Positions 7,940 to 52,586 of a DNA stretch of 64,000 bases are shown here, in pieces (positions within the stretch are counted from its first letter, which is position 1; the number at the start of each line of letters is the position of its first letter). The DNA is taken from NCBI GenBank assembly GCA_035610835.1, contig CM069448.1, positions 4,775,607-4,839,606 on the forward strand, in the 5' to 3' direction. The notes under the pieces were generated by a model. That model had not been told where the DNA came from. It worked only from the letters and a program-made list of their open reading frames with translations, and did not search any database. The stretch is from Ophiura sarsii (lineage: Eukaryota; Echinodermata; Ophiuroidea; Amphilepidida; Ophiuridae). A program made the translations under genes and the position numbers.

Positions 7940-8115
7940 CCAGTCGTGACAGAAAGTTACGACTGGTTTTGTTTTCCGTTCGTTTCTTCTTCTTTACCTA
8001 AGTACTGTATCGCTACTTATTCTTTCTTCTTACCTTGATTTTTCAAAAATCAAGGTTCTCTATCTCTGCCGTTTCTTTCTTCTTTCTTACCTTGATTTTT
8101 TCCAAAAATCGAGGT
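7940..8115 (+). repeat. Stack of solo Helentron-like 5' ends at the left edge of the array
   Basis: Successive hairpins, each followed by CTGTNTC/CCGTTTC and a TTCTT tract. At 7940-7966 CCAGTCGT pairs with ACGACTGG. At 8032-8056 ACCTTGATTTTT pairs perfectly with AAAAATCAAGGT. At 8089-8115 a near copy has one change. A weaker pair (AAGTA/TACTT) lies near 8000-8018. Each follows TT or TTA. They look like 5' termini without their own bodies. Confidence 0.7.
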
Positions 8116-9818
8116 TCTGTATCTCTGCCGTTTCTTTCTTCTTCTTTCTTTCTTTCTTTCTTTCTTTCCTCAAACCCATCTAAAAAATGCTATTTTTTCT
8201 ACAGTTTACATGCTGCAATCACCAGACTTGGTCAGTGGAACCCCCCACCTGACCTTCATATAGGGTCTTCACAGTTTGGGGTCAAAGGTCACACAGGGGT
8301 CACTAGGGGTCAAAAGGTGATTTTCACTTAAAACGCATTTCCAATTTAGTGAAATGACCTAGGATCGTCAAAATTGGTCCACATATTCCTTTTGACCATA
8401 CGCATATACAAAAGAACGGTTTTTAAAATTAAAAATCATTTGGGGTCACTAGGGGTCAAAATGTAAATTTGTACTCCTCGCACTGAAAATGCTATTTTTT
8501 CGGGAGGAAATGACCTATGATTGTCAGAATTGGTCAAAAGATTCCTTGTATCCATGTACATATAGGGTCTTCAGCGATTAAAAGTGACATGTCATATGGG
8601 GTCACTAGGGGTCATTGACCTAAACAAGGGTAAAATGTAAGACATGCTCCGATTTTGACCGGTCATGTTTCATTTTGTAGGCATTGATAAGACAAGAAAA
8701 AAAGTCAATCATTTTCATGGGGTCAAAGATCAACCTAGGTCACTAGGGGTCAAAAGGTCAATTTTCATTCCTCGCACTCAAAATGCTATTTTTTCTACAG
8801 TTTACATGCTACAATCACCAGATTCGGTCAGTAGGACCCCCTACCAGACCTACATATAGGGTCCTCACAGTTTGGGGTCAAAGGTCACACAGGGATCAAA
8901 AGGGGTCAAAACGTGATTTTCACTTAAAACGCGTTTGCAATTTAGTGAAATGACCTAGGATCGTCAAAATTGGTCCACTTATTCCTTTTGACCGTACGCA
9001 TATACAAAAGAACGGTTTTTAAAATTAAAAATCATTTGGGGTCACTAGGGGTCAAAATGTAAATTTTCAATTCGATCACTTAAAATGCATCTTGTCTCAG
9101 AGGAAATGACTCATGACCATCATAATTGCTTAAAAGATTCCTTGGGTCCATGTTCATATAGGGTCATCAGCGATTAAAAGTGACATGTCACACGGGGTCA
9201 CTAGGGGTCATTGAACTTTACAGGGGTAAAAGTTAAGACATGCTCTGATTTGAACCGGGTTTGTTGCATCTTGTTTGGATCGATGAGCCATGAAAATAAG
9301 TTAATAATATTGACCAGGTCAAAGGTCATGAAGGGGTCACTAGGGGTCATTGAACTTTACAGAGGTAAAAGTTAATACATGCTCCGATTGGGACCGGGTT
9401 TGTTGTATCTTGTTTGAATTGATAAGCCGAGAAAATAAGTCAATCATATTGACCAGGTCAAAGGTCAAGAAGGGGTCACTAGGGGTCATTGAATTTTACA
9501 GTAGTAAAAGTTAAGACATGCTCCGATTTGGACCGGGATTGTTGCATCTTGTTTGGATTGATGAGCCAAGAAAAAAAGTCAATCATATTGACCAGGTCAA
9601 AGGTCAAGAAGGGTCAATACGGGGTCATTGAACTTTAGAGGGGTAAAAGTTAAGACATGCTCCGATTTGGACCGGGTTGTTGCATCTTGTTTGATTTGAT
9701 GAGCCAAGAAAATAAGTCAAATATTTTAATCAGGTCAAAGGTCAAGAAGGGGTCACTAGGGATCATTTTCTCATAAAAAAATCAAGGTAGCCTGGTCTTA
9801 GACCGGAGCAAGATCTAG
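8089..9818 (+). mobile_element. Array unit A1, Helentron-like
   Basis: Begins with the ACCTTGATTTTT hairpin and a (CTTT)n tract. The GGTCA-rich body has three ~300-bp sub-blocks and then four ~140-bp repeats (about 9230-9770). The 3' end has AAAAATCAAGGT (complement of the 5' arm), hairpin CTGGTCTTAGACCGG at 9792-9806, AGCAAGAT and CTAG at 9815-9818. First complete unit of the array, family A. Confidence 0.75.
9230..9770 (+). repeat. ~140-bp minisatellite inside unit A1
   Basis: Four tandem copies, each containing GGGTCATTGAACTTTACAG, GACATGCTCCGATTTGGACC, GTTGCATCTTGTTTG and the exact direct repeat AGGTCAAAGGTCA (first at 9316-9328). The same minisatellite recurs at 12.7-13.9 kb in unit A3. 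Confidence 0.85.
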
Positions 9819-11209
9819 TTCTTTCTTCTTTCTTTCTTCTTTCTATCAGACCCATCTAGAAAATGCTATTTTTTCTACAGTTTACATGCTACAATCACCA
9901 AACTTGGTCAGTAGGACCCCCTACCTGACTTACATATAGGGTCTTCAAAGTTAGGGGTCAAAGGTCACACAAAGGTCACTAGTGGTCAAAACGTGATTTT
10001 CACTTAAAACGCATTTCCAATTTAGTGAAATGACCTAGGATTGTCAAAATTGGTCCACATATTCCTTTTGACCGTACGCATATACAAAAGAACGGTTTTT
10101 AAAATTAAAAATCATTTGGGGTCACTAGGGGTCAAAATGTAAATTTTTACTCCTCGCACTGAAAATGCTATTTTTTCGGGAGGAAATGACCTATGATTGT
10201 CAGAATTGGTCAAAAGATTCCTTGTATCCATGTACATATAGGGTCTTCAGCGATTAAAAGTGACATGTCATATGGGGTCACTAGGGGTCATTGACCTAAA
10301 CAGGGGTAAAATGTAAGACATGCTCCGATTTTGACCGGTCATGTTTCATTTTGTAGGCATTGATAAGACAAGAAAAAAAGTCAATCATTTTCATGGGGTC
10401 AAAGGTCAACATAGGTCACTAGGGGTCAAAAGGTCAATTTTCATTCCTCGCACTCAAAATGCTATTTTTTTTACAGTTTACATGCTACAATCACCAGATT
10501 TGGTCAGTAGGACCCCCTACCAGACCTACATATAGGGTCTTCACAGTTTGGGGTCAAAGGTCACACAGGGATCATAAGGGGTCAAAACGTGATTTTCACT
10601 TAAAACGCGTTTGCAATTTAGTGAAATGACCTAGGATCGTCAGAATTTGTCAACATATTCCTTTTGACCGTACGCATATATGATAGTTCGGTTTTTAAAA
10701 TCAAAAAATATTTGGGGTCACTAGGGGTCAAAATGTAAATTTTTAATCCTCGCACTAAAAATGCTATTTTTTCGAGAGGATATGACCCATGATTATCAGA
10801 ATTGATCAAAAGATTCCTTGGATCCATGTACATATAGGGTCTTAAGCGATTAAAGGTGACATGTCATATGGGGTCACTAGGGGTCATTGACCTAAACAGG
10901 GGTAAAATGTAAGACATGCTCCGATTTTGACCGGTCTTGTTTCATTTTGTAGGCAATGATAAGACAAGAAAAAGAGTCAATCATTTTCATGGGGTCAAAG
11001 GTCAACATAGGTCACTAGGGGTCAACAGGTCAATTTTCACTCCTAACACTCAAAATGCTATTTTTTCGGGAGGAAATGACCCATGATTGTCAGAATTGGT
11101 CAAAAGATTTCTTGGATCCATTAAAAGTGACATGTCATATGGGGTCACTAGAGGTCATTAATCCATAAAAAATCAAGGTGTCCTGGTCTCAGACCAGATC
11201 CATGTCTAG
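9819..11209 (+). mobile_element. Array unit A2, Helentron-like
   Basis: 1391 bp. It starts directly with the CTTT/CTTC tract, without a 5' hairpin. The body is close to A1 but lacks the 140-bp minisatellite. The 3' end has AAAAATCAAGGT at 11168-11179, hairpin CTGGTCTCAGACCAG at 11183-11197 and CTAG at 11206-11209. The loop and one stem pair differ from A1 while pairing is kept. Confidence 0.75.
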
Positions 11210-11211
11210 TT

Positions 11212-11580
11212 GCATTTGACATCTAAATGCTCTGTTTTTACCGCGTTCTTTGCCTTAGCTATTTGAGCAAATGGCTAAGGGTCTGTGTTGCCGTGTTTCT
11301 TCTTGCCTTAGCAAATAACAAATTTGCTATAAGGCTCTGTTTTTCCTGTGTTGTTTCTTTCTTTATATATATTAGTCGAGAAACGACTAATATACTGTAT
11401 TCTACCTGTTTCTTCTTTCTTCTTTCTTATATTAGTCGAGAACTTTCTTATATTAGTCGAGAAACGACTAATATACTGTATTATATTAGTCGAGAAACGA
11501 CTAATATACTGTATTCGTCCTGTTTCTTTCTTCTTCTTCTTTCTTTCTTTCTTTACCTTGATTTTTTCAAAAATCGAGGT
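11212..11580 (+). repeat. Seven or more stacked 5' hairpin termini of several families
   Basis: In order: GCATTT/AAATGC hairpin at 11212-11230; CCTTAGC..ATTTG hairpin at 11253-11280; GCCTTA..GCAAAT hairpin at 11305-11335; ATATTAGTCG hairpin at 11369-11393; a truncated copy at 11429-11442; full copies at 11450-11474 and 11483-11507; ACCTTGATTTTTT hairpin at 11555-11580. Most are followed by CTGTNTTC...(C)TGTTTC and a pyrimidine tract. Open frames of 104-146 codons here are artefacts of these repeats. Confidence 0.8.
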
Positions 11581-12689
11581 ACTGTATCTGTACTGTTTCT
11601 TTCTTCTTTCTATCAAACCCATCTACAAAATGCTATTTTTTCTACAGTTTACATGCTACAATCATAAAACTTGGTCAGTAGGACCCCCTACCTGACTTAC
11701 GTATAGGGTCTTCAAAGTTAGGGGTCAAAGGTCACACAGGGGTCACTAGGGATCAAAAGGTGATTTTCACTTAAAACGCATTTCCAATTTAGTGAAATGA
11801 CCTAGGATCGTCAAAATTAGTCCACATATTCCTTTTGACCGTACGCATCTACAAAAGAACGGTTTTTGAAATTAAAAAATATTTGGGGTCACTAGGGGTC
11901 AAAATGTAAATTGTCACTACTTTCATTCAAAATGCTTCTGCTATATCAGGAAATGTTTGATTACTGTCAGAATTGGTCAAAAGATTCCTTACATCCATGT
12001 ACATATAGGGTTTAAAGCCCTTAAAACTGTCATGTTAAATGTGCTCACTAGAGTTATTCATCTGAAAATGTACATGATATTCTTGAGAAAAGCCGTAAAT
12101 AAGTCAAAAGTAGCCCAATATTGCGGCCTAACCGAGGTACTGGCAACATTTAATAAATCGCATTTGATATTTAAGTAATTAATCAACTGGCAGTTTAAGA
12201 AAGAATCATTCCAAAAGAACGAAAGCGCTCCATTTGGCCACATTCTGTTTTTACAGACACATTAAAAGTTTACATGCTACAATCACCAGACTTGGTCAGT
12301 AGGACCCCCTACCAGACCTTCATTACAGGACCTCACAGTTTGGGGTCACTAGGGGTCAAAACGTGATTTTCACTTAAAACGCATTTCCAATTTAGTGAAA
12401 TGACCTAGGATCGTCAAAATCGGTCAACATATTCCTTATGACCGTACGCATATATACTAGTTTGGTTTTTACAATCAACAAATATTTGGGGTCACTAGGG
12501 GTCAAAATTTTGGTTTTTCTTACCATTTCACTTAAAATGCTTCTTGTCTCAGAGGAAATGGCTTATGAATGTCAGAATTGGTCAAAAGATTCCTTAGGAC
12601 TATGCACATACAGCGATCTCAGCGATTAAAATTGACGTGTCATGCGGGGTCACTAGAGGTCATTAACCTATACAGTGGTAAAACGTGAG

Positions 12690-13930
12690 ATATGCTCCGA
12701 CTGGAACCGGGTTTATTGCATCTTGTTTGGATTGATGAGCCAAGAAAATAAGTTAATCATATTGACCAGGTCAAAGGTCAAGAAGGGGTCAATACGGGTC
12801 ATTGAACTTTACAGAGGGAAAAGTTAAGACATGATCCGATTGGGACCGGGTTTATTGCATCTTGTTTAGATTGATGAGCCAAGAAAATAAGTCAATCATA
12901 TTGACCAGGTCAAAGGTCAAGAAGGGGTCAATATGGGTCATTGAACTTTACAGGGGTAAAAGTTAAGACATGATCCGATTTAGTCTGCTCTAGTATACCT
13001 TTTTCCTTGTACCGATAGAAGGCTCACTCCCCATGGACCGCTCCCCATCCTCTGATCTCACCCCGGGAATTTGTATTTGGTCGGTTCTCGGATGGGAAGT
13101 ATCAGGGGGTGTTATTCGATTGTGTGACAGTGAAATTATACAAGGCATACGAGTAGACTAGATCCGATTTGGACCGGGTTTGTTGCATCTTGTTTGGTTT
13201 GATGAGTCAAGAAAATAAGTCAATCGTAATTGACCAGGTCAAAGATCAAGAAGGGGTCAATATGGGTCATTGAACTTTGCAGGGGTAAATGTTAAGACAT
13301 GCTCCGATTTGGACCGGGTTTGTTGCATCTTGTTTGGTTTGATGAGCAAAGAAAATAAGTCAATCGTAATTGACCAGGTCAAAGATCAAGAAGGGGTCAA
13401 TAGGGGTCATTGAACTTTACAGGGATAAAAGTTAAGACATGATCCGATTTGGACCGGGTTTGGTGCATCTTGTTTGGTTTGATGAGTCAAGAAAATAAGT
13501 CAATCATATTGACCAGGTCAAAGGTCAAGAAGTGGTCAATAGGGGTCATTGAACTTTACAGGGGTAAAAGTTAAGACATGATCCGATTTGGACCGAGTTT
13601 GTTGCATCTTGTTTGGTTTGATAAGATAAGAAAATAAGTCAACCATATTGACCAGGTCAAAGGTCAAAAAGGGGTCAATAGGTCATTGAACGATGTTCCG
13701 ATTTGGACCGGGTTTGTTGCAACTTGTTTGGATTGATGAGCCAATAAAATAAGTCAACATATTGACCAGGTCAAAGGTCATGAAAAGGTCACTAGGGGTC
13801 ATTGAACTTTACAGGGGTAAAAGTTAAGACATGCTCTGATTTGGACCGGGTTTATTGCATCTTGTTTGAATTGATGAGCCAAGAAAATAAGTCAATTATT
13901 TTAATCAGGTCAAAGGTCAAGAAGGGATCA
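12690..13930 (+). repeat. ~140-bp minisatellite inside unit A3
   Basis: About eight tandem copies of the block also seen at 9.2-9.8 kb, with AGGTCAAAGGTCA or close variants near 12772, 12911, 13520, 13659, 13778 and 13909. Interrupted at 12981-13160 by a MITE. Confidence 0.85.
12981..13160. mobile_element. Mutator-like MITE, internally deleted copy
   Basis: 180 bp with inverted ends TAGTCTGCTCTAGTATACC and TAGTCTACTCGTATGCC. It is flanked by the exact 9-bp duplication GATCCGATT (12972-12980, 13161-13169) of the minisatellite it interrupts. It equals the two ends of the 5464-6253 element joined with about 610 bp missing, in the opposite orientation. Confidence 0.9.
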
Positions 13931-14027
13931 ATAGGGGTCAAAATGTGATTTTCATTTAAAACGCTCTTGCATTTTAATGAAACGACACAGGAACTTAAGA
14001 ATCTGTCAATATATTCACGATTACCAT

Positions 14028-14066
14028 CCTAACCCTAACCCTAACCCTAACCCTAACCCTAACCCC
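14028..14066 (-). repeat. Interstitial telomeric repeat (TTAGGG)n
   Basis: About six CCCTAA units on the + strand, sitting where sister copies have ACCGTACGCATATATAATAG. It replaces or expands that short segment within unit A3. It fits telomerase-type repair of a break or a chance expansion. Confidence 0.9.
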
Positions 14067-14469
14067 TATATAATACTCGGGTCTTTAAAATCGAAATATG
14101 TTCGGGGTCACTAGGGGTCAAAATGTAAATTTTCACTCTATTCATTCAAAATGATACTTGTCCGAGAGGAAATGACTGATGATTGTCAGAATTGGTCGAA
14201 GGATTCCTCATATCAATGCTGATATAGGTTGCTCCTGCACTAAAAGTGACATGTCACTAAGGGGTCACTAAGGGGCATTGACCTATACAGGGGTAAAATT
14301 GAAGACATTCTCTGATTTTAACCGGACTTGTTTCTTCTTGTGCGCATTGATAAGCCACGAAAAAAGTCAATCATTATAACCAGGTCAACGGTCAAGAAGG
14401 GGTCACTAGGGATCATTTTCTCATAAAATAAATCAAGGTAGCCTGGTCTTAGACCAGAACAAGATCTAG

Positions 14470-15516
14470 TTCTTTCTTTCTTCCGTCATGGGACCTATAG
14501 CTCCGTAACCATTAAGCCGATTTTGACCATATTTGGTCATAAGACCACTACTCAGGTTGTAAAGCATAAGGGGTCAAAGGTCACACAAGGGTAACTAGGG
14601 GTCAAAACGTGTTTTCACTTAAAACGCATTTGCAATTAAGTGAAATGACCTAGGATCATCAGAATTGGTCAACATATTCCTTTTGACCGTACGCATATAT
14701 AATAGTTCGGTTTTTAAAATCAAAAAATATTTGGAGTCACTAGGGGTCAAAATGTATATTTTCAATCTTCGCACTAAACATGCTATTTTTTCGAGAGGAA
14801 ATGACCCATGATTATCAGAATTAGTCAAAAGATTCCTTAAATCCATGTTCACATAGGGTCTTAAGCGAGTAAAAGTGACGTGTCATATGGGGTCACTAGG
14901 GGTCATTAACCTAAACAGGGGTAAAATATAAGACATGCTCTGATTTTGACCGGTTATGTTTCATCTTGTAGGTATTGATAAGACAAGAAAAAAAGTCAAT
15001 CATTATCTTGGGGTCAAAGGTCAACAAGGCATCACTATAGGTCAAAATGTCAATTTTCACTCCAGTCACTCAAAATGCTATTTTTTCGAGGGGAAATGAC
15101 CCATGATTATCAGAATTGGTCAAAAGATTGCTTGTATCCATGTACACATAGGGTCTTAAGCGATCAAAAGTGACATGTCATATGGTGTCACTAGGGGTCA
15201 TTGACCTAAACAGGGATAAAATGTTAGACAAGCTCCGATTTTGACCGGATTTGTTTCATCGTGTGTTCACTGATAAGTCAAGAAAAAATGTGAATACTGA
15301 ACTTGGGGTCAAAGGTCAAAAAAAGAAACTTGGGGTCAAAATGTAAATTTTCATTTATTTCAGACATGCAATTGCTATTGTCCAATAGGAGATGACTGAT
15401 GATTGGCAAACTTAGTCACAATGTTCCATACGAATGAGAGAGTATTGCCATCAGCAGGTCAAAGGTCAACGCAACCTCGACTAATATCCGTGATCTCCGA
15501 TCACAATTATCTCTAG
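14470..15516 (+). mobile_element. Array unit B1, Helentron-like (short form)
   Basis: 1047 bp. Starts with the CTTT tract and GTCATGGGACCTATAGCTCC, no 5' hairpin. The 3' end has CGACTAATAT, hairpin GTGATCTCCGATCAC at 15490-15504, AATTATCT and CTAG at 15513-15516. First family B 3' end in the array. It combines the long-form loop (TCC) with the short-form tail. Confidence 0.75.
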
Positions 15517-16782: not shown

Positions 16783-17821
16783 TTTCTTTCTTTCTTACGT
16801 CATGGGACCTATAGCTCCGTAACCATTGAGCCGATTTTGACCATATTTAGTCATAAGTACCCTTATGTGCACCACTACTCAGGTTGTAAAGCATAAGGGG
16901 TCAAAGGTCACACAAGGGTAACTAGGGGTCAAAACGTGATTTTCACTTAAAACGCATTTGCAATTTATTGAAATGACCTAGGATCTTGAGAATTGGCAAA
17001 CATATTCCTTTTGACCGTACGCATATATAATAGTTCGGTTTTTTAAATCGAAACATTTTTGGTGTTACTAGGGGTCAAAATGTAAATTTTACTCCATTCA
17101 CTCAAAACCCTACTTGTCCAAGGGAAAATGACTAATGATACTCAGAGTTAGTCAAAAGATTCCTTGGATCCATGTACATATAGGGTGCTTCTCCACTAAA
17201 AGTGAAAGGTCAAACAGGGTCAGTAGGGTTGATTGAACTTTACAAGGGGAAAATGTAAGGCATGCTCCGATTTTGACCGGGTTTCTTTTATTTTGTGGGC
17301 ATTGATGAGACAAGAACAAAAGTCAATCATACCGTTAAGGTCAAAGGTCAAGAAAATGTCCCTAGGGGTCCAAATGTACATTTTCACTCCGCGCACTCAA
17401 AATACTACTTGTCCGAGACGAAATGACCGATGATTGTCAGAATTTGTCAAAAGATTCCTCTCATCCATGTTCATATAGGGTGCTTCTCCATTAAAAGTGA
17501 CATGTCAAACGGGGTCACTAGGGGTCAGTGAACTATACAGGTGTAAAACTGAAGACAGGCTCTGATTTTGACCGGACTACTTTTTTCTTGTGCGCATTGA
17601 TAAGCCAAGAAAAAAAGTTAATTATAAGTTTGGGGTCAAAGGTCAAGAAAAGGTCATTAGGGTTCAAAATGTATTTTTTAACTATATAAGGGCTGAAATT
17701 TATAAAAACAATTATCAAATATAGTACAACTTAAGGTTATTGCCCTTTGACAACATATAGCAAGGTCAAAGGTCAAAGCCCTCGACTTATATCCGTGATC
17801 TAAGATCACAATTATCTCTAG
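16783..17821 (+). mobile_element. Array unit B3, Helentron-like (short form)
   Basis: 1039 bp, no 5' hairpin, CTTT tract at once. 3' hairpin GTGATCTAAGATCAC, tail AATTATCT, CTAG 17818-17821. The subterminal arm reads CGACTTATAT, one base off the consensus CGACTAATAT, as in B2. Confidence 0.8.
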
Positions 17822-18945
17822 TTATATTAGTCGAGAAACGACTAATATACTGTATTCGTCCTGTTTCTTTCTTCTTCTTTCTTCTTCTTTCTTCTTCTTC
17901 TTTCTTCTTCTTTCTTCCGTCATGGGACCTATAGCTCCGTAACCATTGAGCCGATTTTGACCATATTTGGTCATAAGTACCCTTATGTGCACCACTACTT
18001 AGGTTGTAAAGCATAAGGGGTCAAAGGTCACACAAGGGTAACTAGGGGTCAAAACGTGATTTTCACTTAAAACGCATTTGCAATTTATTGAAATGACCTA
18101 GGATCGTGAGAATTGGCCAACATATTCCTTTTGACCGTACGCATATATAATAGTTCGGTTTTTTAAATCGAAAAATGTTTGGGGTTACTAGGGGTCAAAA
18201 TGTAAATTTTTACTCCATTCACTCAAAACCCTACTTGTCCGAGGGAAAATGACTGATGATACTCAGAATTGGTCAAAAGATTCCTTGGATCCATGTACAT
18301 ATAGGGTGCTTCTACTCTAAAAGTGACATTTCAAACGGGGTCACTAGGGGTCATTGAACTATACAGGTGTAAAACTGAAGACATGCTCTGATTTTGACCG
18401 GACTACTTTTTTCTTGTGCGCATTGATAAGCCAAGAAAAAAAGTCAATCATAAGTTTAGGGTCAAAGGTCAAAAAAATGTCACTCGGGGTCAAAATGTAA
18501 TTTTTCACTCCATTCACTCAAAATACTACTTGTCCGAGAGGAAATGACTGATGATTGTCAGAATTAGTCAAAAGATTCCTCGTATCAATGTTCATATAGG
18601 GTGCTCCTCCACTAAAAGTGACATGTCTACACGGGGTCACCATTGAACAATACAGGTGTAAAACTGAAGACATGCTCTTATTTTGACCGGACTACTTTTT
18701 TCTTGTGCGCATTGATAAGCCAAGAAAAAAAGTAAATCATAAGTTTGAGGTCAAAGGTCAAGAAAAGGTCATTAGGGTTCAAAATTTATTTTTTTAACTA
18801 CTTCAGGGCTGAAATTATCAAACAATTATCAAATATAGTACAATTTAAGATATTATAAGGTTATTGCCCTTTGACAACATATACCAAGGTCAAAGGTCAA
18901 AGCCCTCGACTAATATCCGTGATCTAAGATCACAATTATCTCTAG
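17822..18945 (+). mobile_element. Array unit B4, Helentron-like
   Basis: 1124 bp. 5' hairpin ATATTAGTCG at 17824-17848, then a long TTTCTTCTTC tract. 3' end of the short type with CGACTAATAT and CTAG 18942-18945. The 5' arm and 3' subterminal arm are exact reverse complements. Confidence 0.85.
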
Positions 18946-19859
18946 TATGTTTTTGTATTTGTACGACAAAAACAAGAAATCTTCTTTCTTCCGTCATGGG
19001 ACCTATAGCTCCGCAACCATTGAGCCGATTTTGACCATATTTGATCATAAGTACCCTTATGTGCACCACTACTCAGGTTGTAAAGCATAAGGGGTCAAAG
19101 GTCACACAGGGGTCACTAGGGTCAAAACGTGATTTTCACTTAAAACGCATTTGCAATTTAGTGAAATGACCTAGGATCTTCAGAATTGGTCAACATGTTC
19201 CTTTTGACCGTACGCATGTACTATAGTTCGGTTTTTTAAATCAAAAAATATTTGGGGTCACTAGGGGTCAAAATGTAAATTTTGCTCCATTCACTCAAAA
19301 CCCTACTTGTCCGAGGGGAAATGACTGATGATACTCAGAATTGGTCAAAAGATTCCTTGGATCAATGTTCATATAGGGTGCTCCTACACTAAAAGTGACA
19401 TGTCAAACGGGGTCACTAGGGGTCATTGAACTTTACAAAGGGAAAATATAAGGCATGCTCCGATTTTGACCGGGTTTCTTTTTTTATGTGAACATTGATG
19501 AGACAAGAACAAAAGTCAATCATACCGTTAAGGTCAAAGGTCAACAAAAGGTCCCTAGGGGTCAAAATGTACATTTTCACTCCGCGCACTCAAAATACTA
19601 CTTGTCCGAGACGAAATGACCGATGATTGTCAGAATTTGTCAAAAGATTCCTATTATCCATGTTCATATAGGGTGCTTCTCCATTAAAAGTGACATGTCA
19701 AACGGGGTCACTAGGGGTCATTGAACTATACAAGTGAAAATCTTAAGACATGCTCCGATTTTGACGGAACTACTTTTTTCTTGCGCGCATTGATAAGCCA
19801 AGAAAAAAAGTCAATCATAAGTTTGGGGTCAACGGTCAAGAAAAGGTCAATAGGGGTCG

Positions 19860-20560: not shown

Positions 20561-20595
20561 TTAAATAAAACGTGAAATAAAAATAATAAAACATC

Positions 20596-42509: not shown

Positions 42510-43928
42510 TTCTTCTTCTTTTTCTGTCATGGGACCTATAGCTCCGTAACCGTTGAGCCGATTTTGACCATATTTGGTCATAAGAACCCTTATGTGCACC
42601 ACTACTCAGGTTGAAAAGCATAAGGGGTCAAATGTCACACAGGGGTCACTAGGGGTCAAAACGTGATTTTCACTTAAAACGCATTTACAATTTAGTGAAA
42701 TGACCTAGGATCGTCAAAATTGGTCCACATATTCCTTTTGACCGTACGCATGTACAAAAGAACGGTTTTTAAAATTAAAAATCATTTGGGGTCACTAGGG
42801 GTCAAAATGTAAATTTTACTCCATTCACTCAAAACCCTACTTGTCCGAGGGAAAATGACTGATGATACTCAGAATTAGTCAAAAGATTCCTTGGATCAAT
42901 GTTCATATAGGGTCCTTCCACACTAAAAGTGACATATCAAACGGGGTCACTAGGGGTCATTGAACTTTACAGTGGGAAAATATAACGCATGCTCCGATTT
43001 TGACCGGGTTTCTTTTATTTTGTGGGCATTGATGAGACAAGAACAAAAGTCAATCATATTGTTAATATCAAAGGTCAAGAAAAGGTCACTAGGGGTCAAA
43101 ATGTACATTTTCACTCCTCGCACTCAAAATACTACTTGTCCAAGAGATAATGACCTATGATTGTCAGAATTAGTCAAAAGATTCCTCTTATCCATGTCCA
43201 TATAGGGTCCTTCTCCACTAAAAGTGACATGTCACACGAGGTCACTAGAGGTCATTGAACTATACAAATGAAAATCTTAAGACATGCTATGATTTTAACG
43301 GGACTACTTTTTTCTTGTGCGCATTGATCAGCCAAGCAAAAAAGTCAATTACAAGTTTTGGGTCAGAGGTCAAAAAAAGGTCACTAGGGGTCAAAACGTG
43401 ATTTTCACTAAAAACGCATTTGCAATTTAGTGAAATGACCTAGGATCGTCAGAATTGGTCAACATATTCCTTTTGACCGTACGCATGTACAATAGTTTGG
43501 TTTTTAAAATCAAAAAATATTTGGGGTCACTAGGGGTCAAAATGTAAATTTTCACTCCATTCACTCAAAATGCTACTTGTCCGAGAGGAAATGACCTATG
43601 ATTGTCAGAATTAGTCAAAAGGTTCCTCTCATCCATGTTCATATAGGGTCCTTCTCCACTAAAAGTGACATGTCACACGGGGTCACTAGAGGTCATTGAA
43701 CTTTACAAGTGAAAATCTTAAAACATGCTCCGATTTTGACGAGACTACCTTTTCCTTGTGCGCATTGATCAGCCAATCAAAAAAGTCAATTACAAGTTTT
43801 GGGTCAGAGGTCAAGAAAAGGTCACTAGGGGTTCAACTGTATTTATTTACTCCATTTACCACTCGAAGGGGTTAACATGTAACACACCCGACTAATATTC
43901 GTGATCTCCGATCACAGGTCATGTCTAG
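42510..43928 (+). mobile_element. Array unit B20, Helentron-like (long form)
   Basis: 1419 bp, no 5' hairpin, short TTCTTCTTC tract. Body variant X'. CTAG 43925-43928. Confidence 0.85.
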
Positions 43929-45346
43929 TTCTTTCTTTTTCTGTCATGGGACCTATAGCTCCGTAACCGTTGAGCCGATTTTGACCATATTTGGCCATAC
44001 GAACCCTTATGTGCACCACTACTCAGGTTGAAAAGCATAAGGGGTCAAAGGTCACACAGGGGTCACTAGGGGTCAAAACGTGATTTTCACCTTAAAACGC
44101 ATTTGCAATTTAGTGAAATGACCTAGGATCGTCAAAATTGGTCCACATATTCCTTTCGACCGTACGCATGTACAAAAGAACGGTTTTTAAAATTAAAAAT
44201 CATTTGGGGTCACTAGGGGTCAAAATGTAAATTTTACTCCATTCACTCAAAACCCTACTTGTCCGAGGGAAAATGACTGATGATATTCAGAATTGGTCAA
44301 AAGATTTCTTTGATCAATGTTCATATAGGGTCCTTCCACACTAAAAGTGACATGTCAAACGAGGTCACTAGAGGTCATTGAACTTTACAGTGGAAAAATA
44401 TAAGGCATGCATCGATTTTGACCGGGTTTCTTTTATTTTGTGGGCATTGATAAGACAAGAACAAAAGTCAATCATACCGTTAAGATCAAAGGTCAATAAA
44501 AGGTCACTAGGGGTCAAAATGTACATTTTTACTCCTCGCACTCAAAATACTACTTGTCCAAGAGATAATGACCTATGATTGTCAGAATTGGTCAAAAGAT
44601 TCCTCTTATCCATGTCCATATAGGGTCCTTCTCCACTAAAAGTGACATGTTACACGAGGTCACTAGAGGTCATTGAACTATACAGGTGAAAATCTTAAGA
44701 CATGCTCCGATTTTAACAAGATTACTTTTTTCTTGTGCGCATTGATCAGCCAAGCAAAAAAGTTAATTACAAGTTTTGGGTCAGAGGTCAAGAAAAGGTC
44801 ACTAGGGGTCAAAACGTGATTTTCACTAAAAACGCATTTGCAATTTAGTGAAATGACCTAGGATCGTCAGAATTGGTCAACATATTCCTTTTGACCGTAC
44901 GCATGTACAATAGTTAGGTTTTTAAAATCAAAAAATATTTGGGGTCACTAGGGGTCAAAATGTAAATTTTCACTCCATTCACTCAAAATGCTACTTGTCC
45001 GAGAGGAAATGACCTATGATTGTCAGAATTAGTCAAAAGATTCCTCTCATCCATGTTCATATAGGGTCCTTCTCCACTAAAAGTGACATATCACACGGGG
45101 TCACTAGAGGTCATTGAACTTTACAGGTGAAAATCTTAAAACATGCTCCGATTTTGACGGGACTACCTTTTTCTTGTGCGCATTGATCAGCCAAGCAAAA
45201 AAGTCAATTACAAGTTTTGGGTCAGAGGTCAAGAAAAGGTCACTAGGGGTTCAACTGTATTTATTTACTCCATTTACCACTCGAAGGGGTTAACATGTAA
45301 CACACCCGACTAATATTCGTGATCTCCGATCACAGGTCATGTCTAG
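43929..45346 (+). mobile_element. Array unit B21, Helentron-like (long form)
   Basis: 1418 bp, no 5' hairpin. Body variant Y. CTAG 45343-45346. The body is nearly the same as B22, including the extra C in CACCTTAAAACGC. Confidence 0.85.
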
Positions 45347-46816
45347 TTATATTAGTCGAGAAACGACTAATATACTGTATTCGTCCTGTTTCTTTCTTCT
45401 TCTTCTTTTTCTGTCATGGGACCTATAGCTCCGTAACCGTTGAGCCGATTTTGACCATATTTGGTCATAAGAACCCTTATGTGCACCACTACTCAGGTTG
45501 AAAAGCATAAGGGGTCAAAGGTCACACAGGGGTCACTAGGGGTCAAAACGTGATTTTCACCTTAAAACGCATTTGCAATTTAGTGAAATGACCTAGGATC
45601 GTCAAAATTGGTCCACATATTCCTTTTGACCGTACGCATGTACAAAAGAACGGTTTTTAAAATTAAAAATCATTTGGGGTCACTAGGGGTCAAAATGTAA
45701 ATTTTACTCCATTCACTCAAAACCCTACTTGTCCGAGGGAAAATGACTGATGATATTCAGAATTGGTCAAAAGATTCCTTTGATCAATGTTCATATAGGG
45801 TCCTTCCACACTAAAAGTGACATGTCAAACGAGGTCACTAGAGGTCATTGAACTTTACAGAGGGAAAATATAAGGCATGCTTTGATTTTGACCGGGTTTC
45901 TTTTATTTTGTGGGCATTGATAAGACAAGAACAAAAGTCAATCATACCGTTAAGATCAAAGGTCAATAAAAGGTCACTAGGGGTCAAAATGTACATTTTT
46001 ACTCCTCGCACTCAAAATACTACTTGTCCAAGAGATAATGACCTATGATTGTCAGAATTGGTCAAAAGATTTCTCTTATCCATGTCCATATAGGGTCCTT
46101 CTCCACTAAAAGTGACATGTTACACGAGGTCACTAGAGGTCATTGAACTATACAGGTGAAAATCTTAAGACATGCTCCGATTTTAACAAGACTACTTTTT
46201 TCTTGTGCGCATTGATCAGCCAAGCAAAAAAGTCAATTACAAGTTTTGGGTCAGAGGTCAAAAAAAGGTCACTAGGGGTCAAAACGTGATTTTCACTAAA
46301 AACGCATTTGCAATTTAGTGAAATGACCTAGGATCGTCAGAATTGGTCAACATATTCCTTTTGACCGTACGCATGTACAATAGTTTGGTTTTTAAAATTA
46401 AAAAATATTTGGGGTCACTAGGGGTCAAAATATAAATTTTCACTCCATTCACTCAAAATGCTACTTGTCCGAGAGGAAATGAACTATGATTGTCAGAATT
46501 AGTCAAAAGGTTCCTCTCATCCATGTTCATATAGGGTCCTTCTCCACTAAAAGTGACATGTCACACGGGGTCACTAGAGGTCATTGAACTTTACAAGTGA
46601 AAATCTTAAAACATGCTCCGATTTTGACGGGACTACCTTTTTCTTGTGCGCATTGATCAGCCAAGCAAAAAAGTCAATTACAAGTTTTGGGTCAGAGGTC
46701 AAGAAAAGGTCACTAGGGGTTCAACTGTATTTATTTACTCCATTTACCACTCGAAGGGGTTAACATGTAACACACCCGACTAATATTCGTGATCTCCGAT
46801 CACAGGTCATGTCTAG
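45347..46816 (+). mobile_element. Array unit B22, Helentron-like (long form)
   Basis: 1470 bp. ATATTAGTCG hairpin at 45349-45373. Body variant Y, sister of B21. The difference in length from B21 is mainly the added 5' hairpin. CTAG 46813-46816. Confidence 0.85.
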
Positions 46817-47855
46817 TTCTTTCTTTCTTCCGTCATGGGACCTATAGCTCCGTAACCATTAGGCCGATTTTGACCATATTTGGTCATAAGAACCCTTATG
46901 TGCACCACTACTCAGGTTGTAAAGCCTAAGGGGTCAAAGGTCACACAAGGGTAACTAGGGGTCAAAACGTGATTTTCACTTAAAACGCATTTGCAATTTA
47001 TTGAAATGACCTAGGATCTTGAGAATTGGCCAACATATTCCTTTTGACCGTACGCATATATAATAGTTCGGTTTTTTAAATCGAAAAATGTTTGGGGTTA
47101 CTAGGGGTCAAAATGTAAATTTTACTCCATTTACTCAAAACCCTACTTGTCCGAGGGAAAATGACTGATGATACTCAGAATTGGTCAAAAGATTTCTTGG
47201 ATCCATGTACATATAGGGTGCTTCTCCACTAAAAGTGAAATGTCAAACGGGGTCACTAGGGGTCATTGAACTTTACAGGGGGAAAATATAAGGCATGCTC
47301 CGATTTTGACCGAGTTTCTTTTATTTTGTGGGCATTGATGAGACAAGAACAAAAGTCAATAATACCGTTAAGGTCTAAGGTCAAAAAAAGGTCCCATGGG
47401 GTCAAAATGTACATTTTCACTCCGCGCACTCAAAATACTACTTGTCCGAGACGAAATGACCGATGATTGTCAGAATTTGTCAAAAGATTCCTCTTATCCA
47501 TGTTCATATAGGGTGCTTCTCCATTAAAAGTGACATGTCAAACGGGGTCACTAGGGGTCATTGAACTATACAGGTGTAAAACTGAAGACATGCTCTGATT
47601 TTGACCGGACTACTTTATTCTTGTGCGCATTGATAAGCCAAGAAAAAAAGTTAACTATAAGTTTGGGGTCAAAGGTCAAGAAAAGGTCATTAGGGTTCAA
47701 AATGTATTTTTTTAACTACTTCAGGGCTGAAATTTATAAAAACAATTATCAAATATAGTACAACTTAAGGTTATTGCCCTTTGACAACATATAGCAAGGT
47801 CAAAGGTCAAAGCCCTCGACTAATATCCGTGATCTAAGATCACAATTATCTCTAG
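46817..47855 (+). mobile_element. Array unit B23, Helentron-like (short form)
   Basis: 1039 bp, no 5' hairpin. 3' hairpin GTGATCTAAGATCAC with AATTATCT, CTAG 47852-47855. Close to B3. Confidence 0.85.
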
Positions 47856-48909
47856 TTCTTCTTCTTTCTTTCTCCTGTCATTAGGCCTATAGCTCCGTAA
47901 CCATTGAGCCGATTTTGACCATATTTAGTCATAAGTACCCTTATGTGCACCACTACTCAGGTTGTAAAGCATAAGGGGTCAAAGGTCAAACAAGGGTAAC
48001 TAGGGGTCAAAACGTGATTTTCACTTAAAACGCATTTGCAATTTATTGAAATGACCTAGGATCTTGAAAATTGGCCAACATATTCCTTTTGACCGTACGC
48101 ATATATGATAGTTCGGTTTTTTAAATCGAAAAATGTTTGGGGTTACTAGGGGTCAAAATGTAAATTTTACTCCATTCACTCAAAACCCTACTTGTCCGAG
48201 GGAAAATGACTGATGATACTCAGAATTAGTCAAAAGATTTGTTCGATCCATGTACATATAGGGTGCTTCTCCACTAAAAGTGGAATGTCAAACAGGGTCA
48301 CTAGGGGTCATTGAACTTTACAGGGGAAAAATATAAAGCATGCTCCGATTTTGACCGGGTTTCTTTTATTATGTGGGCATTGATAAGACAAGAACAAAAG
48401 TCAATCATACCGTTAAGGTCAAAGGTCAAGAAAAGGTCCCTAGGGGTCAAAATGTACATTTTCACTCCGCGCACTCAAAATACTACTTGTCCGAGACGAA
48501 ATGACCGATGATTGTCAGAATTTGTCAAAAGATTCCTCTTATCCATGTTCATATAGGGTGCTTCTCCATTAAAAGTGACATGTCAAACGGGGTCACTAGG
48601 GGTCATTGAACTATACAAGTGTAAAACTGAAGACATGCTCTGATTTTGACCGGACTAGTTTTTTCTTGTGCGCATTCATAAGCGTAGAAAAAAAGTCAAT
48701 TATAAGTTTGGGGTCAAAGGTCAAGAAAAGGTCATTAGGGTTCAAAATGTATTTTTTAACTACTTCAGGGCTGAAATTTATAAAAACAATTATTACAAAT
48801 TATCAAATATAGTACAACTTAAGGTTATTGCCCTTTGACAACATATAGCAAGGTCAAAGGTCAAAGCCCTCGACTAATATCCGTGATCTAAGATCACAAT
48901 TATCTCTAG
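47856..48909 (+). mobile_element. Array unit B24, Helentron-like (short form)
   Basis: 1054 bp, no 5' hairpin, leader TTCTTCTTTCTTTCTCCTGTC. Short-form 3' end, CTAG 48906-48909. Confidence 0.85.
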
Positions 48910-49965
48910 TTCTTCTTCTTTCTTTCTCCTGTCATTAGGCCTATAGCTCCGTAACCATTAAGCCGATTTTGACCATATTTAGTCATAAGTACCCTTATGT
49001 GCACCACTACTCAGGTTGTAAAGCATAAGGGGTCAAAGGTCAAACAAGGGTAACTAGGGGTCAAAACGTGATTTTCACTTAAAACGCATTTGCAATTTAT
49101 TGAAATGACCTAGGATCTTGAGAATTGGCCAACATATTCCTTTTGACCGTACGCATATATAATAGTTCGGTTTTTTAAATCGAAAAATGTTTGGGGTTAC
49201 TAGGGGTCAAAATGTAAATTTTACTCCATTTACTCAAAACCCTACTTGTCCGAGGGAAAATGACTGATGATACTCAGAATTGGTCAAAAGATTTCTTGGA
49301 TCCATGTACATATAGGGTGCTTCTCCACTAAAAGTGAAATGTCAAACGGGGTCACTAGGGGTCATTGAACTTTACAGGGGGAAAATATAAGGCATGCTCC
49401 GATTTTGACCGAGTTTCTTTTATTTTGTGGGCATTGATGAGACAAGAACAAAAGTCAATCATATTGTTAAGGTCGAAGGTTAAGAAAAGGTCCCTAGGGG
49501 TCAAAATGTACATTTTTACTCCTCGCACTCAAAATACTACTTGTCCGAGAGAAAATGACCTATGATTGTCAGAATTATTCAAAAGATTCCTCGTATCAAT
49601 GTTCATATAGGGTGCTTCTCCACTAAAAGTGAAATGTCACACGGGGTCACTAGGGGTCATTGAACAATACAGGTGTAAAACTGAAGACATGCTCAGATTT
49701 TGACCGGACTACTTTTTTTCTTGTGCGCATTGATAAGCCAAGAAAAAAAGTCAATTATAAGTTTGGGGTCAAAGGTCAAGAAAAGGTCGTTAGGGTTCAA
49801 AATGTATTTTTTAACTACTTCAGGGCTGAAATTTATAAAAACCAATTATCAAATATAGTACAATTTAAGATATTATAAGGTTATTGCCCTTTGACAACAT
49901 ATACCAAGGTCAAAGGTCAAAGCCCTCGACTAATATCCGTGATCTAAGATCACAATTATCTCTAG
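48910..49965 (+). mobile_element. Array unit B25, Helentron-like (short form), recombinant
   Basis: 1056 bp. The 5' half matches B23/B24. The 3' half carries the private variants of B7 (AAGGTCGAAGGTTAAG, GAACAATACAGG), so it is a B24/B7 recombinant. CTAG 49962-49965. Confidence 0.8.
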
Positions 49966-49968
49966 TTC

Positions 49969-49999
<31 letters not shown>

Positions 50000-51528
50000 G
50001 TCATGGGACCTATAGCTCCGTAACCATTAGGCCGATTTTGACCATATTTGGTCATAAGAACCCTTATGTGCATTACTACTCAGGTTGTAAAGCCTAAGGG
50101 GTCAAAGGTCACACAAGGGTAACTAGGGGTCAAAACGTGATTTTCACTAAAAACGCATTTGCAATTTAGTGAAATGACCTAGGATCGTCAGAATTGGTCC
50201 ACATATTCCTTTTGACCGTACGCATGTACAAAAGAAGGTTTTTAAAATTAAAAATCATTTGGGGTCACTAGGGGTCAAAATGTAAATTTTACTCCATTCA
50301 CTCAAAACCCTACTTGTCCGAGGGGAAAAGACTGATGATACTCAGAATTGGTCAAAAGATTCCTTGGATCAAAGTTCATATAGGGTCCTTCCACACTAAA
50401 GGTGACATGTCAAACAGGGTCACTAGGGGTCATTGAACTTTACAGAGGGAAAATATAACGCATGCTCCGATTTTGACCGGGTTTCTTTTATTTTGTGGGC
50501 ATTGATGAGACAAGAACAAAAGTCAATCACACCGTTAAGATCAAAGGTCAAAAAATGGTCACTAGGGGTCAAAATGTACATTTTCACTCCTCGCACTCAA
50601 AATACTACTTGTCCAAGAGATAATGACCTATGATTGTCAGAATTGGTCAAAAGATTTCTCTTATCCATGTCCATATAGGGTCCTTCTCCACTAAAAGTGA
50701 CATGTCACACGAGGTCAATAGAGGTCATTGAACTATACAAATGAAAATCTTAAGACATGCTCCGATTTTGACGGGACTACTTTTTTCTTGTGCGCATTGA
50801 TTAGTCAAGCAAAAAAGTCAATAACAAGTTTTGGGTCAGAGGTCACGAAAAGGTCACTAGGGGTCAAAACGTGATTTTCACTAAAAACGCATTTGCAATT
50901 TAGTGAAATGACCTAGGATCGTCAGAATTGGTCAACATATTCCTTTTGACCGTACGCATGTACAATAGTTAGGTTTTTAAAATCAAAAAATATTTGGGGT
51001 CACTAGGGGTCAAAATGTAAATTTTCTCCATTCACTCAAAATGCTACTTGTCCGAGAGGAAATGACTATGATTGTCAGAATTAGTCAAACGATTCCTCTC
51101 ATCCATGTTCATATAGGGTCCTTCTCCACTAAAAGTGACATGTCACACGGGGTCACTAGAGGTCATTGAACTATACAGGTGAAAATCTTAAGACATGCTC
51201 CGATTTTGACGAAACTACTTTTTTCTTGCGCGCATTAATAAGCCAAGAAAAAAAGTCGATCATAAGTTTGGGGTCAAAGGTCAAGAAAAGGTCACTAGGG
51301 GTCAAAAAGTGATATTCACTTAAAACGCCGTTGCAATTTAGTGAAATTACCATAGGATCGTCAGAATTGGCCAAAATATTCCTGTTGACCGTACGCATAT
51401 ACAATAGTTCGGTTTTTAAAATCAAAACTGAACGCTGATTGGTTCCAACAAATACGCACATCCCCGCTCTCTAACTACCAAATCCGCTAGACTAATATCC
51501 GCGATCTCCGATCGCAGCTTATGTCTAG
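49966..51528 (+). mobile_element. Array unit B26, Helentron-like with GCGATC 3' end
   Basis: 1563 bp, no 5' hairpin. Body like variant X, but the last ~110 bp equal those of B13: GGTTCCAACAAATACGCACA, hairpin GCGATCTCCGATCGC at 51501-51515 and CTAG 51525-51528. Confidence 0.85.
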
Positions 51529-52586
51529 TTTCTTCTTTCTTCAGCCATGGGACCTATAACTCCGTAACCATTGACTCGAATTTGATCATATTTAGTCATA
51601 AGAACCCTTATGTGCACCACTACTAAGGTTGTAAAGCATAAGGGGTCAAAGGTCACACAGGGGTCACTAGGGGTCAAAACGTGATTTTCACTAAAAACGC
51701 ATTTGCAATTTAGTGAAATGACCTATGATCGTCAGAATTGGTCAACATATTTCTTTTGACCGTACGCATATATAAAAGAACGGTTTTTAAAATCAAAAAA
51801 TATTTGGGGTCACTAGGGGTCATAATGTAAATTTTCAATCCTCGCACTAAAAATGCTATTTTTTCGAAAGGAAATGACCCATGATTATGAGAATTGGTCA
51901 AAAGATTCCTGTATCCATGTACACATAGGGTCTTAAGCGATTAAAAGTGACATGTCATATGGGGTCACTAGAGGTCATTGACCTAAACAGGGGTAAAATG
52001 TAAGACATGCTCTGATTTTGACTGGTCATGTTTCATTTTGTAGGCATTGATGAGACAAGAAAAAGAGTCAATCATTATCCTGGGGTCAAAGGTCAACAAG
52101 GGGTCACTAAAGGTCAAAATGTCAATTTTCACTCCAGTCACTCAAAATGCTATTTTTTCGAGAGGAAATGACCCATGATTATGAGAATTGGTCAAAAGAT
52201 TCCTTGTATCCATGTACACATAGGGTCTTAAGCGATTAAAAGTGACATGTCATATGGGGTCACTAGAGGTCATTGACCTAAACAGGGGTAAAATGTAAGA
52301 CATGCTCCGATTTTGACCGGTCATGTTTCATTTTGTAGGCATTGATGAGACAAGAAAAAAGTCAATCATTATCTTGGGGTCAAAGGTCAACAAGGGGTCA
52401 CTATAGGTCAAAATGTCAATTTTCACTCCATTCACTCAAAATGCTACTTGTCTGAGAGGAAATGCTTGATGATTGGCAAAAATGGTCTCAAGGTTCCATT
52501 CAAATAAGAGCATACTGTCATCAGCAGGTCAAAGGTCAACACGCCCTCGACTAATATCCGTGATCTATGATCACAATTATCTCTGG
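51529..52586 (+). mobile_element. Array unit B27, Helentron-like, last unit
   Basis: 1058 bp, no 5' hairpin. The body is closer to the family A units at 8-11 kb (TATTTTTTCGAGAGG and GTGACATGTCATATGGGG). The 3' end has CGACTAATAT, hairpin GTGATCTATGATCAC (52560-52574), AATTATCT and CTGG at 52583-52586 in place of CTAG, which still fits CTRR. Confidence 0.8.

What the first reader, a model, noticed from the sequence alone, without database searches (positions are those of the whole stretch)
8032..52586. A 44-kb head-to-tail array of ~30 Helentron-like units behaving as a satellite
Seen: CTRR ends recur at 30 positions (from 9815-9818 to 52583-52586), each 8-9 bases after a 15-nt hairpin and each followed by T. 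The next unit starts at once with a 5' hairpin or a CTTT tract, with no host DNA between. Known: Helentron/HINE elements (DINE-1 type) have 3' hairpins, CTAG-like ends, TT targets, microsatellite and internal tandem repeats, and have seeded satellites in Drosophila and bivalves. Inferred: this array is a tandem multimer of complete non-autonomous rolling-circle elements, not only of their internal repeats.
Basis: partly seen in the sequence, partly recalled or inferred. Interest (0 to 1): 0.9.

Follow-up and report, generated by a model that had tools for sequence, protein, structure and literature searches.

The report
Jumping elements stacked inside each other
In a genome that is probably a brittle star's, thirty copies of a rolling-circle jumping element lie head to tail in one 44-kb block, likely because new copies keep landing in the T-rich front end of older copies.

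Summary
In detail: thirty hairpin-CTRR ends (29 CTAG, one CTGG), all followed by T, mark 30 same-strand units from ~8.0 to 52.6 kb. I fetched 20 of the 39 other near-full places carrying the delta-type 3' end: all 20 end CTAG|T, and 13 lie, by my reading, in host DNA. A Rep-PIF1-endonuclease Helentron elsewhere in the genome has the same kind of 3' end, and units U16 and U29 are internal-deletion derivatives of it. 'Satellite' fits in form only. Neighbours are no more alike than distant units; of three outside units compared, one matched the window units as well as they match each other, one slightly less, one much less. Likely builder: insertion at T|T in the T-rich 5' cap or tract of resident copies, which would also fix orientation. 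Locus L026 shows one such nest complete, and the window repeats it at U03/U04. It explains 12 capless units and stacked caps (1129 exact A-cap stacks genome-wide). Nesting-order statistics are weaker, and no empty site was obtained. Tandem Helitrons and multiple 5' termini are known: a new variant of a known kind.

The parts
7939..8143 (+). left-edge stack of 5' caps: J (7939), degenerate C ('K', about 7984, by reading), C (8032), C (8089), then TTTC tract
8020..9818 (+). U01, C cap, delta 3' end
9819..11209 (+). U02, capless, delta 3' end
11210..14469 (+). U03, caps F, G, H, A, A, A, C stacked (11213-11580) plus a partial A (about 11429), delta 3' end; foreign stretches inside
14470..15516 (+). 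U04, capless, A-family (alpha-like) 3' end; with U03 it has the topology of nested locus L026
15517..16782 (+). U05, starts with the remainder of an A-cap linker (15518), then four A caps; alpha 3' end
16783..17821 (+). U06, capless, alpha
17822..18945 (+). U07, A cap, alpha
18946..21955 (+). U08, B cap, alpha; inverted duplication and foreign stretch inside
21956..23786 (+). U09, B cap, beta 3' end
23787..24839 (+). U10, capless, alpha
24840..26448 (+). U11, tract remainder then three A caps, beta
26449..28033 (+). U12, A cap, beta
28034..29483 (+). U13, B cap, beta
29484..30923 (+). U14, B' cap, beta
30924..32395 (+). U15, A cap, beta
32396..33890 (+). U16, two A caps (32397, 32430), gamma 3' end; internal-deletion derivative of the autonomous partner
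33891..35608 (+). U17, capless, beta
35609..36697 (+). U18, two A caps, beta
36698..38147 (+). U19, B cap, beta
38148..39619 (+). U20, A cap, beta
39620..41058 (+). U21, B' cap, beta
41059..42509 (+). U22, B cap, beta
42510..43928 (+). U23, capless, beta
43929..45346 (+). U24, capless, beta
45347..46816 (+). U25, A cap, beta; its junction with U24 (45297-45395) is the query
46817..47855 (+). U26, capless, alpha
47856..48909 (+). U27, capless, alpha
48910..49965 (+). U28, capless, alpha
49966..51528 (+). U29, capless, gamma 3' end; internal-deletion derivative of the autonomous partner
51529..52586 (+). U30, capless, A-family 3' end with CTGG
52587..52760 (+). capless, HINE-like head of a different family straight after U30 (by reading; no BLAST match to the array)
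54116..57766 (+). second cluster of other Helentron-like families: F cap 54121, I caps 56055 and 56460, 3' ends 56044 and 56449
3824..3863 (+). 3' end of the G/H-cap family (TTTGCTAAGGC subTIR, imperfect hairpin, CTAG|TT)

Best explanation
The 44-kb block is a head-to-tail array of 30 non-autonomous Helentron (HINE) units, related by their ends to a Rep-PIF1-endonuclease Helentron elsewhere in the same genome, and it was likely built by new copies inserting at T|T in the T-rich 5' cap and tract of copies already there. Shown: unit borders; dispersed copies with the same borders; T-rich, strand-biased insertion sites; one complete nested insertion (L026); the autonomous partner's 3' end and endonuclease; two units that are its deletion derivatives. 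Inferred: the Helentron protein nicks and copies the units by rolling-circle replication. Because insertion follows the T-rich strand, and a unit's own 5' tract is T-rich on its sense strand, each newcomer would land in the same orientation. It would separate the resident's cap (left behind as an extra, stacked cap) from its body (which becomes a capless unit). Repetition would give oriented arrays with no host DNA between units, and recombination among copies then scrambles caps and body variants.
For: Ends: 30 of 30 confirmed. SubTIR pairs: A cap with the alpha, beta and gamma ends, C cap with delta, G/H cap with the end at 3863, I cap with 56044 (1 mismatch; 2 at 56449). Dispersed delta copies: 20 fetched of 39 other near-full places; CTAG|T in 20, CTAG|TT in 18, C cap in 18, TT before the cap in 18 of 18; column conservation 1.00 inside and 0.48 outside at the 3' border, 0.88 and 0.43 at the 5' border. 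13 solitary sites: on average 13.5 T and 4.2 A per 24 flanking nt on the element strand. Nested L026; the exact pattern delta end|capless A body occurs at 2 places genome-wide, L026 and the window's U03/U04, control 0. A-cap stacks: 1129 exact, controls 0. Partner: Rep PF14214, PIF1 C-terminus, Exo_endo_phos 1.1e-9, 3' end CTAG followed by an A-capped unit; U16 and U29 equal its first ~1.07 kb joined to its 3' end. Orientation: 56 of 58 neighbour pairs within 100 kb on one strand; 37 of 39 for the 100 listed A-cap stacks merged to 69. No neighbour effect.
Against: Cap/body nesting order in the window is weak alone: the ballot condition holds in 16% of shuffled orders, and the typed version (0.0015) gains from families being clustered. 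Of two predicted split linkers, one is clear (15518) and one ambiguous (33891). U05 and U06, which share rare end variants, are not nearest in body. B/B' caps match no 3' subTIR that I could see. Same-family cap stacks could also be slippage. Both autonomous unit starts examined are capless; a capped one was not seen. One stack in the C1 cluster and one junction in the C4 cluster lie on the opposite strand. The TTTC-rich 616-bp stretch at 62598-63213 shows no unit border in my scans, so a T-rich tract alone is not enough. Body variants are strongly recombined (642 of 1275 site pairs incompatible), so exchange between copies is real. No empty site was obtained.
Confidence: 0.7

Rival explanations
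1. Classical satellite growth: one HINE was multiplied in place by unequal crossing-over and homogenised by gene conversion.
For: Long junction-spanning self-matches; r2 between body sites falls from 0.47 (<30 bp) to 0.10, and half of site pairs fail the four-gamete test. Two of three outside units are less like the window units than these are like each other (95.9 v 96.7%; 84%).
Against: Adjacent units are no more alike than distant ones (96.8 v 97.0%, Spearman p 0.56). A beta tail from contig C5 is 98.2% identical to window units against 97.7% among them. Different families (C-delta, A-alpha, F and G/H caps) are interleaved. Caps stack and bodies lose caps, which duplication of whole units does not give.
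Confidence: 0.15
2. Rolling-circle concatemers: circle replication or bypass of the 3' hairpin produced a multimer inserted once.
For: Exact head-to-tail joints; Helraiser circles join the ends the same way (PMC4778049 passages); bypass is the explanation given for bat and silkworm arrays (PMC4067079 section 15).
Against: Neighbouring beta units differ by about 3% and others belong to different families, so they are not copies of one circle. Stacked foreign caps and capless bodies need insertion.
Confidence: 0.1
3. Composite transposition: nests like L026 form once elsewhere, then blocks from an outer 5' cap to a 3' end are moved as one unit into arrays.
For: Proposed for multiple 5' termini in Fusarium (PMC5148889 section 16); autonomous unit starts on C1 and C5 share the same upstream beta end|capless joint at 98.5% over 1102 bp.
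Against: Inside the window both halves of a nest (stacked cap and capless body) lie together at U03/U04, and body identities of the beta units do not come in blocks.
Confidence: 0.1
4. Stacked caps come from slippage in the TTTC tracts and capless units from independent cap deletions, with no nesting.
For: Short-period cap duplications, e.g. 33 bp at 11448-11515 and 32396-32463 and 56 bp at 15631-15750; ballot test p 0.16.
Against: L026 and U03/U04 show a whole element between cap and body; a stack of F, G/H, A and C caps (U03) is not slippage.
Confidence: 0.05

Closest known systems
HINE / DINE-1-like elements and Helentrons (Thomas et al. 2014, PMC4067079)
   Same: palindromic subTIR at the 5' end, subTIR and palindrome near the 3' end, T-rich TT target, microsatellite and internal repeats, non-autonomous copies that are deletion derivatives of a Rep-helicase-endonuclease partner
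   Different: oriented arrays of about 30 units with stacked caps, capless bodies and interleaved autonomous copies; the parts of that paper I saw only suggest clusters as possible for Helentrons
Cg_HINE elements of oyster (PMC7492417)
   Same: 5' subTIR with complementary IR, mostly 4-nt microsatellite, central tandem repeats, 3' subTIR and palindrome
   Different: there single elements carry short internal arrays; here complete elements are the repeated unit
FoHeli with multiple 5' termini (PMC5148889)
   Same: several short 5' termini before one 3' terminus; self-insertion proposed; one case of three copies in tandem in Metarhizium
   Different: here both products of the nest (stacked cap and capless body) are seen together, at array scale and across families
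Tandem Helitrons of bat, maize and plant centromeres (PMC2267711 and PMC12628747 passages; Xiong 2016 seen only as cited)
   Same: head-to-tail CTAG|5' end joints, multiple 5' ends
   Different: A|T-target Helitrons; attributed to consecutive insertion or rolling-circle amplification of truncated copies, without the T-tract orientation rule

Membership tests
HINE (non-autonomous Helentron) | palindromic subTIR within a few nt of the 5' end | tested here: met
   A and C hairpins fold at -8.5 and -6.7 kcal/mol, z -4.6 and -4.4. The A hairpin follows T in 18 of 19 copies. Met by capped units only; 12 of 30 units lack a cap
HINE (non-autonomous Helentron) | matching 3' subTIR 38-60 bp and a palindrome 8-35 bp from the 3' end (figures given for the mite HINEs) | tested here: met
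   CGACTAATAT or AAATCAAGGT starts about 40 nt and ends about 30 nt before the 3' end, so by its inner edge slightly closer than the mite figure; 6-3-6 hairpin 8-9 nt before CTAG. The hairpins fold weakly: z -0.3, -2.1, -1.8
HINE (non-autonomous Helentron) | insertion within TT / T-rich sequence | tested here: met
   TT before the cap in 18 of 18, CTAG|TT in 18 of 20 dispersed copies; 13.5 T v 4.2 A per 24 nt at 13 sites
HINE (non-autonomous Helentron) | no target-site modification, shown by empty sites | not tested
   joined-flank queries did not complete
HINE (non-autonomous Helentron) | dispersed copies with the same borders | tested here: met
   20 of 39 other near-full delta places fetched, the best-scoring ones; 13 solitary by my reading. 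A-family solitary copies were not sampled
HINE (non-autonomous Helentron) | deletion derivative of an autonomous Helentron | tested here: met
   U16 and U29 match positions 40-1107 of the autonomous stretch (pieces of 88-93%) up to ...AACTACCAAATCC, then jump to its 3' end. Met for these two units; the others share head and ends
Helentron (autonomous partner) | Rep plus PIF1-like helicase plus C-terminal endonuclease in one ORF | tested here: met
   C1:47027350 open frame 2302 aa with PF14214; in-frame C-terminal 285 aa: PIF1 3.5e-5, Exo_endo_phos 1.1e-9. The middle of the ORF was not fetched
Helentron (autonomous partner) | both ends shared with the non-autonomous units | tested here: inconclusive
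   3' end matches (gamma-like) and the first ~1.07 kb of body matches; both copies examined lack their own 5' cap
Satellite DNA | homogenised tandem repeats, array mates more alike than outsiders | tested here: inconclusive
   no neighbour effect among 11 beta units; of three outside units one is as close as array mates, one slightly less, one much less

The most novel reading that the evidence does not exclude
A transposon family that carries its own landing pad: the T-rich 5' tract of each copy attracts and orients the next copy, so autonomous Helentrons and their passengers build largely strand-pure, nested arrays of 200 kb or more, satellite-like DNA made by transposition alone and holding its own transposase genes.
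Probability: 0.5. Interest if true: 0.75.

Novelty: new variant of a known kind. Interest (0 to 1): 0.62.

Why it matters
How transposons turn into satellite arrays is an open question, with unequal crossing-over, rolling-circle concatemers and insertion preference all proposed. Here each insertion would leave a readable trace (a stacked cap on the left, a capless body on the right), so the order of events can in principle be read from the sequence. It would also explain why whole arrays lie on one strand, and it places open transposase frames inside the arrays they would feed.

Tried and rejected
Rejected: chance hairpins. Local concerted evolution as main cause (few outside units). Caps inherited with their own body or with the upstream body (p 0.80 and 0.91). 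U05/U06 as sister elements proving a nest (bodies not nearest). A true tRNA inside U08 (ARAGORN 0). Led nowhere: three viral-contig scans and one genome-contig scan for window motifs found nothing. L059-L063, pieces around three other Rep copies including the one nearest the window on C8, gave one short BLAST match (75 bp) to the window and no cap-like hairpin that I recognised. L067 missed the unit start. Empty-site queries did not complete (L012; L022). One search was a script that stopped on an error of mine; one search repeated its last part.
Full report
WHERE IT IS. The window is contig C8, bases 4775607-4839606, of a 1,573,662,873-base genome in 748 contigs. Size and layout fit the brittle star Amphiura filiformis (1.57 Gb, nanopore reads, 20 chromosome-size scaffolds; passages of PMC11310086). 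A reverse-transcriptase fragment at 61772-62134 has a named Amphiura protein as hit 11 of 120 listed (81% identity over 77%). The species is an inference. If it is right, the long-read assembly makes a collapsed-repeat artefact less likely, but this was not tested.

OBSERVATION. Thirty 3' ends from 9818 to 52586 were found and all are followed by T; 29 are CTAG and one CTGG. A mechanical scan gave 31 perfect-stem hits on the + strand, against 3 on the - strand and a null mean of 0.27. The units fall into four 3' types. Alpha, beta and gamma share a GACTAATAT-type subTIR (TTATAT in U05 and U06); delta has AAATCAAGGT. The 5' caps are A (TATATTAGTCGAGAAACGACTAATATA plus linker CTGTATTCGTCCTG), B/B' (by reading, degenerate A), C (ACCTTGATTTTTTCAAAAATCGAGGT) and rarer F, G, H, J. 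A pairs with alpha, beta and gamma, C with delta, G/H with a 3' end at 3863, I with ends at 56044 (1 mismatch) and 56449 (2). Twelve units have no cap; six units (U01, U03, U05, U11, U16, U18) have more than one. U03 stacks seven caps (F, G, H, A three times, C) and a partial A; G and H are alike.

ARE THEY TRANSPOSON ENDS? Search with a 96-base delta end gave 41 rows: the window, 39 other near-full places and one partial (40 of 1355 candidates scored). I fetched 20 of the 39, mostly the best-scoring. All 20 end CTAG|T, 18 of them CTAG|TT. In 18 a C cap lies upstream and in 18 of 18 it is preceded by TT. Sequence conservation stops at both borders. By my reading 13 are solitary (L012 seemingly inside a palindromic repeat), 6 tandem or nested (L009, L015, L017, L023, L026, L027) and one unclear (L019, C cap only 702 bp upstream). 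At the 13 solitary sites the 24 flanking bases hold on average 13.5 T and 4.2 A on the element's strand. So insertion is at T|T with a strand preference.

PARTNER. Family PF14214 gives 150 scored matches of 249 candidates. One, C1:47027350 with an open frame of 2302 aa, was followed to its ends. The in-frame tail matches the C-terminus of PIF1 helicase (3.5e-5), then Exo_endo_phos (1.1e-9): the Helentron order. Then comes a gamma-like 3' end, GACTAATATCCGCGATCTCCGATCGCAG...CATGTCTAG, and directly an A-capped beta unit. Its 5' part is about 1 kb of HINE-like sequence beginning, without a cap, straight after a beta 3' end; a second, shorter HINE-like stretch lies in L064 near 1864-2060. Units U16 and U29 match the autonomous stretch from position 40 to 1107 (pieces of 88-93%), including a non-repeat end ...CTCTCTAACTACCAAATCC, and then jump to the 3' end. 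That is the definition of a HINE given for the mite (deletion derivative of a Helentron; PMC4067079 section 4). A second autonomous start on C5 has the same joint (98.5% over 1102 bp). Thus autonomous elements sit inside the same kind of arrays. A 99-base beta|A-cap junction query found 40 of 40 scored places at 100% (788 candidates). Placing these beside 102 Rep hits of the long-ORF class (the other 48 rows left out; they add one same-strand pair), neighbours within 100 kb are on one strand in 56 of 58 pairs; on C1 a 201-kb stretch reads Rep J Rep J Rep Rep J Rep J Rep J Rep, all +. Against this, one of 20 A-cap stacks listed for C1 46.8-47.2 Mb is on the - strand; over the 100 listed stacks, merged to 69, neighbours agree in 37 of 39 pairs. 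These lists hold only scored or first-listed hits, and that all the Rep hits belong to this family was not shown.

HOW THE ARRAY GREW. Eleven beta units with equal bodies (1387-1388 nt) are 95.4-98.8% alike. Adjacent pairs are not more alike (96.8 v 97.0%). Caps go neither with their body (p 0.80) nor with the upstream body (p 0.91). 642 of 1275 site pairs fail the four-gamete test and r2 falls towards background by about 300 bp. A beta tail from C5 is 98.2% identical to window units, against 97.7% among them; a C1 head 95.9 v 96.7%; a more distant unit (L027) 84%. This speaks against growth from local copies alone and for a genome-wide pool, on few outside units.

The direct evidence for nesting is L026: host DNA, an A cap (one base changed) with its tract, a complete 3-kb delta element with C cap, then TTTC tract and capless A-family body, CTAG, host DNA. 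The exact pattern 'delta end then capless A body' occurs at two places genome-wide, L026 and U03/U04 of the window, control 0. L009 shows three C caps, a delta body and a capless delta body. A-cap stacks number 1129 exact matches, the window's included, controls 0; same-family stacks alone could also be slippage. In the window a linker remainder (TCTACCTGTTTC) occurs outside a cap only at 15518, where a stack reading of U03 and U04 predicts the rest of the cut cap at 11449. A second case at 33891 is ambiguous. Counting caps (my own calls) as opening and bodies as closing brackets, the order never goes negative and one of 30 pairings mismatches; shuffled unit orders meet the first in 16% and both in 0.15%, but the latter is helped by families lying together. 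In caps and tracts TT is 196 per kb and AA 46; in bodies 98 and 124. Hence a T-strand-guided insertion into a tract would keep orientation.

CAP INVARIANCE. The A hairpin is identical in 19 of 19 full copies in 10 units of the window (up to 5 mismatches were allowed). In the first 330 nt of body of seven of these units no 27-nt window of 229 is invariant; but among the four A-capped core beta units 443 of 1309 windows are, and among all eleven core beta units 136 of 1309. At the body's singleton rate 1.8 to 3.5 changes would be expected. So the invariance is notable across subfamilies, modest within beta, and not absolute genome-wide (L026). Selection on the ends in the mobile pool is the simplest reading.

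LITERATURE. HINE structure: abstract, section 4 part 1, section 15 and passages of PMC4067079. Oyster HINE: abstract, sections 7 and 10 part 1 of PMC7492417. Multiple 5' termini and self-insertion: abstract, sections 6, 10, 16 and passages of PMC5148889. Circles and read-through: passages of PMC4778049. Maize pair: passages of PMC2267711. Reviews and satellitome: passages of PMC12628747 and PMC8268682. D. virilis repeats: passages of PMC3833285. Searches listed no paper that I recognised as describing oriented nested Helentron arrays with interleaved autonomous copies, or this genome's Helitrons; several listings were cut (one search showed 12 of 292), I saw mostly titles and starts of abstracts, and subscription papers are mostly not held.

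LIMITS. The whole-genome machine answered 5 queries. No empty site was tested.

Noticed in passing
window 7683-7870: Exon of a subtilisin-like protease (PF00082, 4.1e-6) with a GT just after it; the first cap begins about 70 nt further on, so the array may lie in an intron. No later exon was recognised by a motif scan of the window.
   Followed up: partly
window 8020-52586: Units are full of (A/G)GGTCA direct repeats: DR1-type 88 on the + strand and 2 on the - strand, DR4-type 181 and 0, window-wide (77 and 178 on + in the array). These resemble nuclear-receptor half-site pairs (recalled); possible decoy sites.
   Followed up: partly
window 62598-63213: 616-bp CTTT/TTC-rich stretch with no cap or unit 3' end in my scans: a natural counter-example to 'any T-rich tract attracts insertions'.
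   Followed up: no
window 5463-6253 and 12981-13161: A short element in U03 matches, inverted at about 97%, the two ends of a 791-bp stretch in the left flank: probably a MITE and its internally deleted copy.
   Followed up: no
window 19787-20563 and 20563-21200: U08 holds inverted copies of its own repeat and an unrelated 640-bp piece with a tRNA-like look; ARAGORN finds no tRNA.
   Followed up: partly
window 14028-14065: Six tandem CCTAAC units, telomere-like, inside U03.
   Followed up: no
window 61283-62301: Reverse-transcriptase pieces in separate frames on the - strand (PF00078 for 61772-62134, below cut-off for 62116-62301), a decayed LINE-like element.
   Followed up: no
G000:C2:60574724-60574780: A truncated A-cap hairpin joined straight to the last bases of an alpha 3' end (TATCTCTAG|T) before another A cap: a near-minimal element or deletion product.
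   Followed up: no
L059:3872-7600: N-terminal part of a long Helitron_like_N protein also matches DUF6570 and Herpes_teg_N.
   Followed up: no
G000: 150 scored Helitron_like_N matches (a lower bound), many in open frames over 2000 aa, often in same-strand clusters: the genome seems to hold many rolling-circle elements with open frames.
   Followed up: partly
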